Made by a program: the position numbers and the translations under genes. Positions 42,686 to 48,445 of a DNA stretch of 62,420 nt are shown in pieces (within the stretch, counting starts at the first letter, position 1; every line of letters starts with the position of its first letter). The notes under the pieces are model-generated. The model saw only the letters and a list, made by a program, of their open reading frames with translations, searched no databases and was not told the origin of the DNA. Source of the stretch: a virus. The stretch is from positions 1 through 62,420 of the IMG/VR virus record IMGVR_UViG_3300033997_000134; one strand, 5' to 3'.

Positions 42686-43987
42686 TTAAGCCAACTCACT
42701 GGCCATCAGTGGCACAGCGGTGTCGATGGCGATCACGCCGTGGTCGGTGAAGTGCGCCACACCGTTGCCCTGCTCGATCTTCCAGCGCACCTTGGCCATG
42801 CCTTGGATAGCGCCAATCAGCAGCTCCGTCTTGTCGCCGTGGTCGAACTCCAGCTCCGACCAGAAGAAGGGCATACCGCCTTGCTTGTCAGGTGCAGCAG
42901 CGAAGGCTTGCGCCAGTGCTTGGCCACCCAGCAGCAAAGCGCGATCCACCGCGTGGGTAGTGCCAAAGCTGGCAGGTACGATCACGCTGCTTTCGGCCTC
43001 GCTGGTGTGCGATGCGCAGTAGCGAATCTCGTTGCCTGCGTAAAAGCGGATGGGCTTGGGCATCTTCATCAGCAAGATGCCATTCCACAAACCGACTTCA
43101 CCCAGGAACAAGGGGTGGTTCTTCGCACGGGAAGCACGCGCCGTGGCACTGGCCTGGAACTGGCGGAAGTTGGGGTCTTGCGCGAAGTGGTGGTACTGCG
43201 CGGGAGACACCAGCATGCAGCGCAGTGGCGAATCGTCGGCCATGATGTCGCCGGGGATCTTCACGGCAGGCGGTGGCAGCGCGATGGATTCAATCACCGT
43301 GCGCACCGAATCCACCACATCCATGGAGAGGGTGTCGGTGGTAGCCAGGTCGATTTCTCCAGCAGAGGCTGTGAATGGCTTGATGGCGTCACCGTCCGCG
43401 ATGTAGTGGCGGTTTTTGGTGGGAGCCTTCACGGGATTGATTAGGATTTCCTCAAACCCGGCGTGCTCAGGGGTTGGAATACGCCATTCGAAGTTGTTGT
43501 GGAAACCGCGTGCACCGGCCATGTGTACCAGCGTGGATTGATCCTGGTAGGAATCCATCAGCGACTGCGCCACGGGGCGGCCCAGCTTGCGGAATTCCAC
43601 GGGGGAGCGCACCTTGCTCATGGTGTCGCCCAAGTCCACGGGGAAGCGGGCTTGATCCACACGCAGGCGGTACTTGTCCAGCGACATGCCGGTACCCTTG
43701 CCCTCGGCCTTTTGGCGGCCCATGATGGGGTAAGCACCTACAGGCTGCAGGAAGTGGAATTCCACCTCGTCGCCCGTGCCTTTACCCAGGTCGCGCGCCT
43801 TGACGATGGGCATGTCTGCCGAAGTCTGGCTGCGCACATTGGCTGCGGCACCAGCTTCACCCGTGGGGAATGGTGCGCTCATGCGGTTGAGCGTCGAGTT
43901 GCGTTGCATCGACTGGGCAAACAGCCCTGCCGCTTGCACATGCATGGCATTAGGGCTGCCAGCTGCCACAGAAGTCTTACCGGACAT
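42686..43987 (-). CDS. major capsid protein (N4-gp56/DUF4043 family)
   Basis: 433 residues. Characteristic blocks: MPIVKARDLGKGTGDEVEFH, AYPIMGRQKAEGKG, SLDKYRLRVDQARFPVDLGD, NHPLFLGEVGLWNGILLMKM, then PASFGTTHAVDRALLLGGQALAQA and KTELLIGAIQGMAKVRWKI. These match the N4-gp56/DUF4043 capsid family with the HK97 fold. Preceded by the scaffold gene and followed by decoration, the usual order. Confidence 0.88.
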   Translation of the reverse strand: MSGKTSVAAGSPNAMHVQAAGLFAQSMQRNSTLNRMSAPFPTGEAGAAANVRSQTSADMPIVKARDLGKGTGDEVEFHFLQPVGAYPIMGRQKAEGKGTGMSLDKYRLRVDQARFPVDLGDTMSKVRSPVEFRKLGRPVAQSLMDSYQDQSTLVHMAGARGFHNNFEWRIPTPEHAGFEEILINPVKAPTKNRHYIADGDAIKPFTASAGEIDLATTDTLSMDVVDSVRTVIESIALPPPAVKIPGDIMADDSPLRCMLVSPAQYHHFAQDPNFRQFQASATARASRAKNHPLFLGEVGLWNGILLMKMPKPIRFYAGNEIRYCASHTSEAESSVIVPASFGTTHAVDRALLLGGQALAQAFAAAPDKQGGMPFFWSELEFDHGDKTELLIGAIQGMAKVRWKIEQGNGVAHFTDHGVIAIDTAVPLMASELA

Positions 43988-44041: not shown

Positions 44042-45025
44042 TTAAATCACTTTGTTCATCAGTCGCTCGATTTCCTCGGGCGACTTACCTTCAAACAGGC
44101 CCATCAGCGCGCCGGGGTCGCCCAAGGCGCCGTTCAGCTGCTCTGCACCGCTCTTGGCCACCAAAGCACCAGGCACATCCGTCAAGGTGTTGGGGGGAGA
44201 GGCCTTCGCCTGATTGATCAAAGCGGTCACACTGGGATTGCCTCCCGGTGCGGTTGCTTGCTTGAAGGTGCTGAACACCTCCACGATTTGCTCGGTACTG
44301 CCCTTGGCCATGGTCTGCTCGGTGGCAGCGCGCATGAACGCGGGCAGGCTTTCAAGCCACTGGTTCCATTGACTGGATTCCACGATCTCGTCCGCATCAG
44401 GGTGAGCTTGGTAGATGGCCTTGTAGTGAGCCTCTTGGGCCGACTGCTTTTCCTTCTTGCTCTCCTGCTCGCGGATGGGCGCCAGCTGCTGCTGCACCTG
44501 CATAGCCACCATCTGCGCGAGGCCTTTGGCAATGGCCTGCTCGGAGAAGTCCCCAAACAGTTCCATGTCCACGCCACCGGCCATAGCGGCTTGCGCCACG
44601 GCCAAGTTCGCGTCTGCCTGCGTTGCGCCTTCACCGGACTCGGCGCGCGCGCTGGCGGCTTGCTGGGCCTGCTGCAGATTGGCCTGCTGCTGTGCTGTCA
44701 GTTGCTGGATTTGTTGCTCCAGCTCGGCATTGCGCTGCTTGTACGTGTCACGCTCGGTACGGGCTTCGACCAGCTTCTCGTAGGGAATCTGGTAAGAACC
44801 GGACTTGCTGGCAATGGGCGCGGGCTGCTCAGTCTCGGGCTGGGTGCCGTTGTCATTACCAGCTGGCGCGCCTGCATCGGCTGGCGCTGGATCGTTGTTT
44901 TCCGTTGCTGCAGTGGTGGTGGCAGTGACCGTTGTTTCTGTCTGGCGCTCCGCACCTGAATCCAGATCAAGGGTGCCGCTCATTGCAGCGTCCAGCAAAG
45001 CGCTGGCATCAAAGGTTCCTGGCAT
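44042..45025 (-). CDS. capsid scaffolding protein
   Basis: 327 residues from ATG 45025 (MPGTFDASALLDAAMSGTLD). Acidic, Gln/Ala-rich with a long coiled coil (LVEARTERDTYKQRNAELEQQIQQLTAQQQAN region) and a small C-terminal domain ending SPEEIERLMNKVI. These are typical scaffold features. It lies directly upstream of the capsid gene. A degenerate copy of the late motif (about 45,031-45,052) touches the start. An upstream start (TTG 45193) would add 56 poorly conserved-looking residues and is less likely. Confidence 0.8.
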   Translation of the reverse strand: MPGTFDASALLDAAMSGTLDLDSGAERQTETTVTATTTAATENNDPAPADAGAPAGNDNGTQPETEQPAPIASKSGSYQIPYEKLVEARTERDTYKQRNAELEQQIQQLTAQQQANLQQAQQAASARAESGEGATQADANLAVAQAAMAGGVDMELFGDFSEQAIAKGLAQMVAMQVQQQLAPIREQESKKEKQSAQEAHYKAIYQAHPDADEIVESSQWNQWLESLPAFMRAATEQTMAKGSTEQIVEVFSTFKQATAPGGNPSVTALINQAKASPPNTLTDVPGALVAKSGAEQLNGALGDPGALMGLFEGKSPEEIERLMNKVI

Positions 45026-45216
45026 GCGTCTAACCCCAGCTATCCGGCTGGGCCTATGTGTGCATGCAGTCGTTAGGAGAAGTGGGGCAAGGCCTCCGGC
45101 CCTACCCCTCTGCTCTTTTTCCGTCTGCGGGAAATGCCGACTCATCACGAGTGGGCGGTTCGTTGCTGGCTTGCGCTGGCAACTTGAGAGCAAGTTTCTG
45201 GCGTTGTGTCAAGAAC

Positions 45217-45236
45217 CCCAAAACCTAGCCGGGGTG
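45217..45236 (-). promoter_or_regulatory. late intergenic motif, copy 5
   Basis: Minus-strand CACCCCGGCTAGGTTTTGGG, directly after the terminator 45,242-45,268. The scaffold start is 211 nt downstream. The intervening 190 nt hold no sure gene; TTGACA occurs 5 nt after the motif. A second, degenerate motif (CCGGATAGCTGGGGTTAG) lies right before the scaffold ATG. Confidence 0.6.
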
Positions 45237-45241
45237 GGCAA

Positions 45242-45268
45242 CAAAAAACCGCCTCGGTGGGCGGTTCC
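45242..45268 (-). terminator. intrinsic terminator after the Acb2/Tad1-like gene
   Basis: Minus strand AACCGCC...GGCGGTT followed by TTTTGT. It ends the gene at 45,289 and precedes late motif copy 5. Confidence 0.75.
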
Positions 45269-45288: not shown

Positions 45289-46089
45289 CTATTGTTTGGC
45301 GAGGCGGTCATGGAAGATTTGTATACGCTGCTCTAGCACTGAGGCATACGCACCCATATTAAGTAACTGAGCGCGCATTAGTTCTTTGTCTATTTCTGGC
45401 AAGTCATTGAACTGCGGATTGGTATCAATGAATGCCTTGAGCTTGCGCAGGCGGTCATCCAGTTCATCTTTTTCATCCACCACGCGCTCTTGGTGTGGCT
45501 CTAAACGCCACAGTCGTTTGTGCTTTCCTGGTTCATTTACTGAACCGAACCGCTGTGGTGGACAGTTGCTGCAAGCCTCATTACCTGTGCACGTGCATGC
45601 CTGCATCGCTGCAAAGGCCTGATTGATCGAGGCGCTCGTCCGGGCAGATTCATCCAGTGCGGCCTTGGCATATTCCAGACTGCCAACACCCAGCAGCTGG
45701 TCAATCGCGGCGCGCGCCAGCTTGCCTGCTTGCTTATTGCCGTTCAGCACTGCAGCAACAACCACATGCTGCATGGCCTTCAGCTCCAGGTTTTGCCGGT
45801 GCGCCTGCAGGCTGTTCGCAAGGCATCCGTTCGCATGGCTTGCAGCCAATGAGTTGCATGAGTTGCTGCCCGTCCCTAGCTCTATCGACACATCGACCTT
45901 GACGGCATGAAACACAAGCAGCACCAGGAATGCCAGCACTACCCCTTGGGCCGTCAGCTTGACGGCTGGCCAATATGGCCACGCTGCAATGCTGGGTGTG
46001 GTTTGCGCAGCCACAAGGCAAGCGAATAGAACAAATGCAGCCAGCACCAGCAGCCACGGCCCTTTGGGGGATAGAAATGCGGATTTCAA
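45289..46089 (-). CDS. membrane protein with Acb2/Tad1-hairpin-like domain
   Basis: 266 residues if TTG 46089 is the start (AGGAG 6-7 nt upstream); no ATG is available in the right place. Two N-terminal transmembrane helices (PWLLVLAAFVLFACLVAA and QGVVLAFLVLLVFHAVKV) precede a helical middle, a Cys-rich stretch (QACTCTGNEACSNCPP), and a C-terminal region HQERVVDEKDELDDRLRKLK...LMRAQLLNMGAYASVLEQRI. The last 65 residues match the Acb2/Tad1-hairpin pattern of small phage proteins that bind cyclic-nucleotide signals (anti-CBASS, anti-Thoeris). A membrane-anchored fusion would be new to me. Domain call is from pattern memory. Confidence 0.7.
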   Translation of the reverse strand: MKSAFLSPKGPWLLVLAAFVLFACLVAAQTTPSIAAWPYWPAVKLTAQGVVLAFLVLLVFHAVKVDVSIELGTGSNSCNSLAASHANGCLANSLQAHRQNLELKAMQHVVVAAVLNGNKQAGKLARAAIDQLLGVGSLEYAKAALDESARTSASINQAFAAMQACTCTGNEACSNCPPQRFGSVNEPGKHKRLWRLEPHQERVVDEKDELDDRLRKLKAFIDTNPQFNDLPEIDKELMRAQLLNMGAYASVLEQRIQIFHDRLAKQ

Positions 46090-46104
46090 TTGCTTCTCCT
46101 GAAT

Positions 46105-46131
46105 AAAAAAGGCTCCCGGAAGTGGGAGCCT
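46105..46131 (-). terminator. intrinsic terminator after portal gene
   Basis: Minus strand AAGGCTCCC-ACTT-CCGGGAGCC followed by TTTTTTATTC. It lies between late motif copy 6 and the TTG start at 46089. Confidence 0.78.
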
Positions 46132-46157
46132 TGATTGCAAGGGAAGGCGCGCAATGT

Positions 46158-46177
46158 GCCTCAACCTAGCCGGGGTG
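46158..46177 (-). promoter_or_regulatory. late intergenic motif, copy 6
   Basis: Minus-strand CACCCCGGCTAGGTTGAGGC, starting one base after the portal stop. A terminator lies between it and the next gene, whose start is 88 nt away. The spacing exceeds 50 by about the length of the terminator. Confidence 0.6.
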
Positions 46178-48445
46178 CTAGAAGTTGTCCCCCAGCTCCG
46201 GTGTCTCGATGCCGTCCATTCCTTGCTCTGGCTGCTGTGGCACTGGTGGGAAGGCTGGCGATGTGTTCTCCCGCACCTCTGGCATGCCTTCTGCCGCACC
46301 AGCTGGCGCGATGGGGGCGGGCATGGGCGGCACTTGGCCCGCAGTGGGGAAGTTCGGGTCAGCACCGCCTGGTGTTGGCTTTTGGTAGCCAGCGGATTGC
46401 ATGATGGCATCGGCCACGGGCGCGATTTGTGGCATCTGGGCCACCTGCACACCGGCTTGCATGGCACTGAATGCCGCCTGCACGCCGGTCTGCACGGCCT
46501 CCTGCAGCAGTTTCTTGATCTTGGCTTCGCTCTCAGCTTCCTTGATGGACAGCTCGCGCTCCTTGAGGTCGTACATCAGCTCTTGCTTGACCTGCTCGCG
46601 CATTGCCTCGGGGTCTGCTTGGCTGCGCGCCTCGCGCAAAGCCTCCACCACTTGCTTCTTGCGGGGCACGTCCATCAGATCCACCATGAAAGGCACCATC
46701 ACGCGCTGCTCCTCGGGCGGCAGGCTCTTGGTGGTTTCGGTCATGGCGTTGAGCTGCTGGGCACGGAAGCCTGGGCTGCTTGGCACATCCTCCAGGGCCA
46801 CCATGAGCTTGGTACGTGAAATATCGTTGCTCAGATAGGCAAGGCCTGTGGCTGGGTCAATCTCCGGCTTGTTGAGCACCACGGTGCGCGCTGGGTTGAT
46901 GGTGTCACCCTCAATCACCACCGCAGTTTCTTCCTTGCCAATGTCCTCGATGATCAGTGCCATCAGCATTTCACCCACCTGCTGGCGCGCCTCCTTGAAC
47001 ATATCCATGGGGCTGGCCAGCGCGGTCGTGGACTGCTCCAGCTGTGTCTGCTCCTGCAGGCCACTGGTGGCGGTGCCCTGCTGTCCTCGCAGGCTGGGGG
47101 TGACAGGGCTCACGCGCTCGATAGCGGCGCGGCTGTCTTGCATCAGCTGGAAGTGCTGGGCGTTGAGCTGGAAGTCGCGCTTGACCTCAAAGCGCGCACC
47201 AGGCTGTGACATGACGGCGGGGTTGAGCACAATGTCCGCATCGGGCCGTGCAATCTGGCGGCGGAATTGCTCGTCCTCCATGGCCACGGCACCCTTGGTG
47301 CGCTCTGTACGGGCAGCACCCAGCCCCCAGCGCAGCTTGGCCAGCGTGCTGTTGAGGCTGTCTTGCGGGAAAAGCATGTCGCGCACCATGCCATACGGCA
47401 CTCCGGTGGTGTCCTCGCGGTAGCACCACACGGGCACATACGGGAAGTGCTTGAAGGGGTATGGGCTGGCGCTGTCGTCCAGCTGGTGCGGCCCCATCCA
47501 GTACGCGCGCCGGATGCGTGCCACGGTGGCGCGCTCCAGCTTGCCAATGCCCGACTGCACTGCAGCCACATGGGCAGCATTGTTGGGGTCAAACTCCACC
47601 ACCCGGCCTGTCTTGCGCACCTTGAGCACCAGCACCTGCACCCAGCGGCGATACCAGACTTCGGAGATGCAGACCTGACGGTTTTCGTCGTTGTACCAGG
47701 CATCCTCCTGCACCGTCCAGGCGCGCTCATGGCCCGCGGCTGCGTACAGGCCTGTGCTGGTGCCGCCTTCATTCTCCTCCGCGGCGAAGTCTGCAACCCA
47801 ACCTGTGTGCATGCGCATGATCAGCTCGGCATGCTGCGGGAAGGTTTTTGCGCCTTGGTCACGATCCACCCAGCGGCGGCGCACCAGCCAGCGCGCATCC
47901 TTCAAGTCTGGCTCCTGTGCCTTCATGTCCCACCAGATTTCATTGCGTGACACATAACGGCAGCGGTAGGGATACTCAAAGGGATCAGAGGGGCGCGACA
48001 CTTCCACCCAGCCCAGCCCCACACTGATGGCGGGCCGAAAAGCCTCGCTCAAGGCGCGGTCAGCCTTGGAATGGCGCTCTGCCTGGTTGAGCCGGTAATT
48101 GAGGGCATCGGCCACGTCCTGGCCGTCTGGGTTGCCATCGGGCGTCACACGCCAGTCGGTGCGCGTCTTGGCCTCATAGCCACACACAGCGGCGATGGCT
48201 GGGCCGATGATGTTCTCTTTGGCCGGTGGAATGCCCAGCTTTTGCTGGCGGCGCAGCAGATCGCTGTCCAGCTGGTTGCCGTCTGCATAGTCGGCTTCCT
48301 TGTCGGCCTGGGCGCGCCACGGCACTTGGTTATGCGCCTCCCGGACGATGGACTGCCATTCAGTCAGGCTCAGTGGTTCATCGCCCATGGGGGTTTGCTG
48401 CGCGTTGCCACCGCGCTCCTGGTATGGCTGGCTTTGCATCAGCAT
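46178..48445 (-). CDS. portal protein (P22 gp1-like)
   Basis: 755 residues. N-terminal ADKEADYADGNQLDSDLLRR then GIPPAKENIIGPAIAAVCGY matches P22-type portals; WWDMKAQEPDLKDARWLVRR and HFPYVPVWCYREDTTGVPYG are further typical blocks. The C-terminal 130 residues are Gln/Pro/Met-rich with a barrel-like helix. Its ATG follows the terminase stop directly. It forms the dodecameric DNA channel at the head vertex. Confidence 0.9.
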   Translation of the reverse strand: MLMQSQPYQERGGNAQQTPMGDEPLSLTEWQSIVREAHNQVPWRAQADKEADYADGNQLDSDLLRRQQKLGIPPAKENIIGPAIAAVCGYEAKTRTDWRVTPDGNPDGQDVADALNYRLNQAERHSKADRALSEAFRPAISVGLGWVEVSRPSDPFEYPYRCRYVSRNEIWWDMKAQEPDLKDARWLVRRRWVDRDQGAKTFPQHAELIMRMHTGWVADFAAEENEGGTSTGLYAAAGHERAWTVQEDAWYNDENRQVCISEVWYRRWVQVLVLKVRKTGRVVEFDPNNAAHVAAVQSGIGKLERATVARIRRAYWMGPHQLDDSASPYPFKHFPYVPVWCYREDTTGVPYGMVRDMLFPQDSLNSTLAKLRWGLGAARTERTKGAVAMEDEQFRRQIARPDADIVLNPAVMSQPGARFEVKRDFQLNAQHFQLMQDSRAAIERVSPVTPSLRGQQGTATSGLQEQTQLEQSTTALASPMDMFKEARQQVGEMLMALIIEDIGKEETAVVIEGDTINPARTVVLNKPEIDPATGLAYLSNDISRTKLMVALEDVPSSPGFRAQQLNAMTETTKSLPPEEQRVMVPFMVDLMDVPRKKQVVEALREARSQADPEAMREQVKQELMYDLKERELSIKEAESEAKIKKLLQEAVQTGVQAAFSAMQAGVQVAQMPQIAPVADAIMQSAGYQKPTPGGADPNFPTAGQVPPMPAPIAPAGAAEGMPEVRENTSPAFPPVPQQPEQGMDGIETPELGDNF

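What the first reader, a model, noticed from the sequence alone, without database searches (positions are those of the whole stretch)
45289..46089. Membrane-anchored Acb2/Tad1-hairpin-like protein among head genes
The last 65 residues fit the Acb2/Tad1-hairpin family (HQERVV-E--ELD-RL-KL--FI ... LL--Q---M--Y--VL--RI). Stand-alone Acb2 and Tad1 sponge cyclic-nucleotide signals of CBASS and Thoeris defences. Here the domain follows two transmembrane helices and a Cys-rich segment, and the gene sits between portal and scaffold with its own terminators and a late motif. A membrane-tethered sponge, or a virion-delivered one, would be a new arrangement.
Basis: partly seen in the sequence, partly recalled or inferred. 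Interest (0 to 1): 0.8.

Follow-up and report, generated by a model that had tools for sequence, protein, structure and literature searches.

The report
Membrane-anchored phage protein, likely counter-defence
A temperate phage carries, between two head genes, a membrane-anchored protein whose tail belongs not to the Acb2/Tad1 sponge family but to a different, unstudied phage domain (crAss001_48) that is repeatedly fused or adjacent to known immune-signal sponges, so it may help the phage evade bacterial immunity.

Summary
The ORF is real: 46089-45289, minus strand, TTG start, 266 aa. It has two N-terminal transmembrane helices, a helical segment, a four-Cys knuckle and a helical hairpin, and it sits alone between the portal and scaffold genes of an F116-like podovirus. 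The family call is wrong. The tail matches Pfam PF21825 crAss001_48 (E 2e-20), not PF24729 Acb2_Tad1_hairpin. PF24729 finds nothing in this genome although it finds T4 Vs.4 at 70 bits, and profile-profile comparison gives 0.3% and 0.1% probability. AlphaFold gives a confident hairpin, but that fold is generic.

The functional guess gains indirect support from elsewhere. crAss001_48 is fused to Tad2 in Vibrio and Bacteroides phages and, in the opposite order, in a Lampropedia genome. It also sits on an adaptor domain that other phages join to Tad2, and lies next to Acb2/Tad1-type genes. Related domains recur in this same portal-to-head cargo slot; in Vibrio phage 1.205.O the gene after the portal is a crAss001_48-Tad2 fusion.

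Best reading: a moron-type, inner-membrane protein holding a cytosolic crAss001_48 domain that works against nucleotide-signalled host defence. Ligand binding is untested. Superinfection exclusion is the main rival.

The parts
45289..46089 (-). ORF of 266 aa (TTG start, AGGAG at about 46096-46100): 2TM + helical segment + four-Cys knuckle + crAss001_48 domain
45888..46089 (-). residues 1-67: two transmembrane helices (about 10-28 and 40-67), predicted N-in/C-in
   Evidence: hydropathy, AF2 helices at moderate pLDDT; topology from the positive-inside rule, inference
45562..45597 (-). residues 165-176, CTCTGNEACSNC, four-Cys knuckle similar to the tail CTCGPNMACTNC of the Gp49_66 protein in the same slot of L016
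   Evidence: metal binding is inference
45289..45501 (-). residues 197-266: crAss001_48 domain (PF21825), helical hairpin
   Evidence: E 2e-20; AF2 pLDDT 95
46109..46132 (-). terminator-like hairpin between portal stop and the gene's ribosome-binding site
45243..45267 (-). terminator-like hairpin (ACCGCC-CACCGA-GGCGGT, T run) after the gene
   Evidence: read from sequence; not listed by the scan
46163..46176 (-). late-region motif ACCCCGGCTAGGTT, upstream copy
45222..45235 (-). late-region motif ACCCCGGCTAGGTT, downstream copy, ahead of scaffold gene
46178..48445 (-). portal gene (P22-like), upstream border of the cargo slot
   Evidence: PF16510 E 8e-102; phrog_156
44042..45034 (-). scaffold-like gene, downstream border of the slot
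   Evidence: phrog_479 E 1e-44; followed by major head protein 42686-43987 (phrog_334)

Best explanation
It is a horizontally acquired cargo gene (moron) in a variable slot between portal and scaffold genes. Its product is a 2TM inner-membrane protein with the crAss001_48 (PF21825) hairpin facing the cytosol. I think the domain works against host defence that uses nucleotide signals (Thoeris/CBASS class), by sequestering a signal or blocking its effector, with the TM anchor keeping it at the membrane. Shown: ORF, domain identity, membrane helices, slot variability, and the fusion and neighbour links of PF21825 to Tad2 and Acb2/Tad1-type genes. Inferred: orientation, expression, counter-defence role, ligand.
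For: PF21825 match E 2e-20. crAss001_48-Tad2 fusion in Vibrio phage 1.205.O directly after a portal 31% identical to this one. Adaptor-crAss001_48-Tad2 in Bacteroides phage BS-TP1, and crAss001_48-Tad2 in BS162P1. Tad2-crAss001_48 in the reverse order in a Lampropedia genome. Consecutive genes Gp49_66, adaptor-Tad2, crAss001_48 in Klebsiella phage Kpn16-P2. The same adaptor precedes Tad2 in Kapi1 and Louie, and crAss001_48 in CSP3 and in 24 records with at least 80% coverage. Acb2/Tad1-hairpin genes directly beside crAss001_48 genes in L038 (over cut-off) and L051 (below cut-off), and about 1.8 kb away in L046. The slot is empty or holds different cargo in relatives, including stand-alone crAss001_48 in L007 and L009 and a crAss001_48 gene next to Gp49_66 in L016. 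GC is 54.8% against 61-63% for neighbouring head genes.
Against: No member of PF21825 has a tested function that I could find. Tad2 and Acb2 genes are absent from this genome. Of 33 crAss001_48-bearing viral contigs only one has Tad2, and it is far away. Neighbour links are few and were examined after the fact. No ligand site could be identified. The N-terminal 190 residues have no convincing relative, so the membrane-anchored arrangement rests on one genome.
Confidence: 0.4

Rival explanations
1. Prophage-expressed superinfection-exclusion or abortive-infection membrane protein: the 2TM part acts on the envelope or as a pore, and crAss001_48 is its cytosolic sensor or oligomerisation part.
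For: Several other cargo proteins of the same slot have hydrophobic membrane segments, e.g. F116p41 with two TM plus a cytosolic domain, L004, L008 and the L005/L018/L024/L030 family. Terminators on both sides suit a moron.
Against: Most PF21825 proteins have no TM part and sit among small soluble accessory genes of lytic as well as temperate phages. No sigma-70 promoter-like site of its own was found on the minus strand.
Confidence: 0.25
2. crAss001_48 is only an oligomerisation or docking module; the protein is a membrane scaffold for a host-takeover task unrelated to immune signals, and the link to Tad2 reflects mix-and-match of small accessory phage domains.
For: The domain is joined to many different N-terminal parts: adaptor, Gp49_66-type, HLP hairpin, unknown domains, TM. 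It has a generic helical hairpin fold.
Against: Among the characterised domains seen as partners, Tad2 recurs in unrelated phages and in both orders.
Confidence: 0.22
3. A structural or virion-associated membrane-like protein of the head, delivered at infection.
For: Position between portal and scaffold; the late-strand motif lies on both sides.
Against: The slot is empty in close relatives such as LKA5, L021 and L028, which keep intact head genes; terminators separate it from both neighbours. In Lessievirus JC1 the homologous stretch lacks the crAss001_48 insert that CSP3 has (PMC9144972).
Confidence: 0.07

Closest known systems
PF21825 crAss001_48-related proteins (e.g. the 68-aa gene of L007; founder in Bacteroides phage crAss001)
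   Same: full-length domain match, conserved P-H-Q-x-R-V...E...L..F...Q...M..Y...L..RI..F, helical hairpin
   Different: known members are stand-alone or fused to soluble parts; none of those read here has two TM helices and a Cys knuckle in front
Tad2 (PF11195) and Tad2-crAss001_48 fusions (Vibrio phage 1.205.O gene 04, BS-TP1 gp86, Lampropedia L136)
   Same: share the crAss001_48 domain; in 1.205.O also the position right after the portal
   Different: the window protein has no Tad2 domain; TM helices take the place of a soluble sponge
Acb2/Tad1 hairpin family (PF24729; T4 Vs.4)
   Same: two long antiparallel helices; sometimes encoded beside crAss001_48 genes
   Different: no profile or profile-profile similarity; the residues invariant in T4-type Acb2 are not found
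Morons of F116-like (Hollowayvirus) phages, e.g. F116p41
   Same: same portal-scaffold slot, two TM plus cytosolic domain
   Different: unrelated sequence

Membership tests
PF21825 crAss001_48 | match to the curated profile above its cut-off over the whole domain | tested here: met
   72.9 bits against 24.8, positions 1-61 of 61
PF21825 crAss001_48 | residues invariant in 34 aligned members | tested here: met
   the window protein is one of the 34 rows and keeps all of them (V12, E15, L26, F29, Q50, M54, L61, R64, I65); the alignment was seeded by this protein
PF24729 Acb2_Tad1_hairpin | match to the curated profile | tested here: not met
   no match in protein or genome; control T4 Vs.4 70.3 bits
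PF24729 Acb2_Tad1_hairpin | distant homology by profile-profile comparison | tested here: not met
   0.3% and 0.1% probability; shallow profiles
PF24729 Acb2_Tad1_hairpin | fold: two long antiparallel helices packed as in Acb2/Tad1 | tested here: inconclusive
   hairpin predicted, but PDB matches are generic and uninformative for this small fold
PF24729 Acb2_Tad1_hairpin | hexamer binding cyclic nucleotides | not testable with these tools
   needs binding and oligomer assays
Tad2 (PF11195) | Tad2-like domain | tested here: not met
   absent from the protein and the genome
moron / cargo gene | present or absent, or replaced, at one site among relatives | tested here: met
moron / cargo gene | own promoter and terminator | tested here: inconclusive
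   terminators on both sides; no sigma-70 match on the minus strand; only about 20 bases between the upstream terminator and the start codon

The most novel reading that the evidence does not exclude
PF21825 is a further family of phage immune-signal sponge or counter-signalling domain, distinct from Acb2, Tad1 and Tad2, and this phage carries a membrane-tethered version that acts at the inner membrane, where several CBASS effectors work.
Probability: 0.17. Interest if true: 0.8.

Novelty: new variant of a known kind. Interest (0 to 1): 0.5.

Why it matters
crAss001_48 proteins are found in many phages (165 phage records matched the query) and have no known function. Repeated fusion to the anti-Thoeris domain Tad2 in both orders, use of the same adaptor, and neighbouring Acb2/Tad1 genes give a concrete, cheap hypothesis to test for the whole family. 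If the membrane-anchored version sequesters signals, it would be a new way of placing a sponge close to membrane effectors. The portal-scaffold slot of F116-like phages also looks like a good place to look for counter-defence cargo.

Tried and rejected
Acb2/Tad1 membership: rejected on profile and profile-profile evidence. Acb2/Tad1 do not appear among the 50 PDB matches shown by Foldseek or by VIA-align, which are generic hairpins. Solved-structure sequence search: nothing credible. Relatives of the N-terminal 190 residues: none in phages or viral contigs, and only weak scattered matches, best E 0.001, in 399 Burkholderiales-type genomes. Full-length relatives: none. The full-length AF2 model has weak overall order (pTM 0.37) and gave no structural match. 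Lipoprotein idea (LFAC at 21-24): set aside, because a second TM helix follows and the -2 residue is unusual. Mycobacteriophage matches at 26-30% identity: marginal, not pursued. Statistical link of PF24729 to PF21825: two adjacent genes against 0.11 expected (P about 0.006), but the distance was chosen after seeing the data and one of the two is below the curated cut-off. Gp49_66 is next to crAss001_48 in only two of 33 records, so that link is not general. The Vibrio HLP-hairpin protein (P0004) has no Pfam match, so I do not call it Acb2-like.

Full report
What was claimed.

The gene. On the minus strand a 266-residue frame runs from a TTG at 46089 to the stop at 45289. AGGAG lies six bases before the TTG. 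Codon preference, measured against the phage's own head genes, is highest in this frame for the N-terminal, middle and C-terminal parts alike. GC is 54.8% against 61-63% for portal, head and scaffold genes, and 48% in the C-terminal part, which suits recent acquisition. Hydropathy gives two membrane segments. The full-length AF2 model has helices 10-28, 40-67, 83-115, 119-132, 137-164 and a C-terminal hairpin 198-265; only the hairpin is highly confident. By the positive-inside rule both ends should face the cytosol (inference).

The domain. Residues 197-258 match PF21825 crAss001_48 (E 2e-20, the whole profile). No PF24729 match exists in the protein or anywhere in the 62,420-base record; the same profile finds T4 Vs.4, the T4 member, at 70 bits. 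HHalign of 34 crAss001_48 sequences against T4-type Acb2 gives 0.3% probability, and against a broader set 0.1%. The AF2 model of the domain is a helical hairpin at pLDDT 95. Its PDB matches are generic coiled-coil hairpins and have no E below 0.001. In BFVD it finds other phage proteins, among them a 63-aa protein of crAss001. A hairpin alone therefore says little, and the Acb2/Tad1 label should be dropped.

The slot. The portal is 57% identical to that of Pseudomonas phage F116 and its relatives. In relatives the stretch between portal and scaffold genes is empty or short (LKA5, L021, L028) or holds different genes: a 2TM protein in F116 (F116p41), zinc-ribbon/HNH-like genes in L008 and L010 (judged by eye), and others. 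In L007 the gene directly after the portal is a stand-alone 68-aa crAss001_48 protein. In L009 and L016 a Gp49_66 gene is followed by a crAss001_48 gene. So this is a cargo slot, and related domains have entered it more than once. The Gp49_66 protein of L016 ends in CTCGPNMACTNC, which resembles CTCTGNEACSNC in the window protein. In Vibrio phage 1.205.O the gene right after a portal 31% identical to ours is a crAss001_48-Tad2 fusion. In Burkholderia phage CSP3 an adaptor-crAss001_48 gene lies between portal and head protein, where JC1 has none (PMC9144972).

Link to counter-defence. Tad2 is an established sponge for Thoeris signals, and Tad1 and Acb2 for Thoeris/CBASS signals (review PMC12043709). 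PF21825 is fused to Tad2 in the order crAss001_48-Tad2 (Vibrio 1.205.O; Bacteroides BS-TP1 and BS162P1) and in the order Tad2-crAss001_48 (Lampropedia genome, L136). Both orders mean at least two separate fusions. An adaptor of about 70 residues (GYLVEY...GYxSWSPxxVFExAYR) precedes Tad2 in Kapi1, Louie and Kpn16-P2, and crAss001_48 in CSP3 and others; 24 phage records cover at least 80% of the adaptor-crAss001_48 query. In Kpn16-P2 the genes Gp49_66, adaptor-Tad2 and crAss001_48 follow one another. In L038 the gene directly after crAss001_48 is an Acb2/Tad1-hairpin protein; in L051 the gene directly before it is a sub-threshold match, and in L046 one lies about 1.8 kb away. In L121 an Acb2/Tad1 gene sits directly before a Tad2 gene. 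Among 33 crAss001_48 contigs PF24729 occurs in five, two of them adjacent to crAss001_48, against 0.11 expected. This is suggestive, not strong, because the distance was chosen afterwards. Tad2 itself occurs in only one of the 33, far away.

Regulation. A terminator hairpin stands between the portal stop and the gene and another after it (read). The 14-base motif ACCCCGGCTAGGTT occurs eight times, always on the late strand, with exact copies on both sides of the gene. Only about 20 bases separate the upstream terminator from the start codon, so transcription probably starts before the terminator or reads through it (inference).

How it most likely works. A temperate phage carries an inner-membrane protein with a cytosolic crAss001_48 domain. 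The company this domain keeps suggests that it counters nucleotide-signalled immunity, by binding a signal or by blocking the effector, and the anchor would keep it at the membrane. I give 0.4 to a counter-defence role of this kind and 0.17 to true signal sequestration by a new sponge fold at the membrane. Exclusion or abortive infection by a prophage membrane protein (0.25) and a non-signalling docking module (0.22) remain open.

Limits. The 2TM arrangement is seen in this genome only. PF21825 has no tested member that I found (open-access library only). Neighbour evidence is indirect.

Noticed in passing
window minus strand: 14730, 17676, 27249, 30345, 38039, 45222, 46163, 51033: A 14-base motif ACCCCGGCTAGGTT (fuller form CACCCCGGCTAGGgTTaGGC) occurs eight times on the late strand, mostly between genes and several times just after a terminator; possibly a phage-specific late promoter or operator.
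   Followed up: partly
L127:1288-2007, L078:1486-1998, L136: crAss001_48-Tad2 fusions in both domain orders in unrelated phages, one with the adaptor in front.
   Followed up: yes
L132:801-1322, L135:801-1271, L129:3267-3692, L078:2052-2477: An adaptor domain without a Pfam family (SWSPxxVFExAYR) is shared between Tad2, crAss001_48 and other small phage proteins; its function is unknown.
   Followed up: partly
L002:8353-9264 (F116p41): F116 has a different 2TM-plus-cytosolic-domain gene, without a Pfam match, in the same portal-scaffold slot.
   Followed up: no
L138 and L078:2052-2477: A hairpin-like domain (FxYxHLPxxLQxVSxPLGELA...LPDGxEKSAGxRKLLEAKDC) is fused to crAss001_48 or to the adaptor; it has no Pfam match and may be worth comparing with Acb2/Tad1.
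   Followed up: partly
window 45020-45070: An inverted repeat CCCAGCTATCCGGCTGGG upstream of the scaffold gene appears to be conserved in several relatives (L005, L018, L024), judged by eye from translated frames.
   Followed up: no
L121:3648-4369: An Acb2/Tad1-hairpin gene lies directly before a Tad2 gene: a compact counter-defence pair.
   Followed up: no
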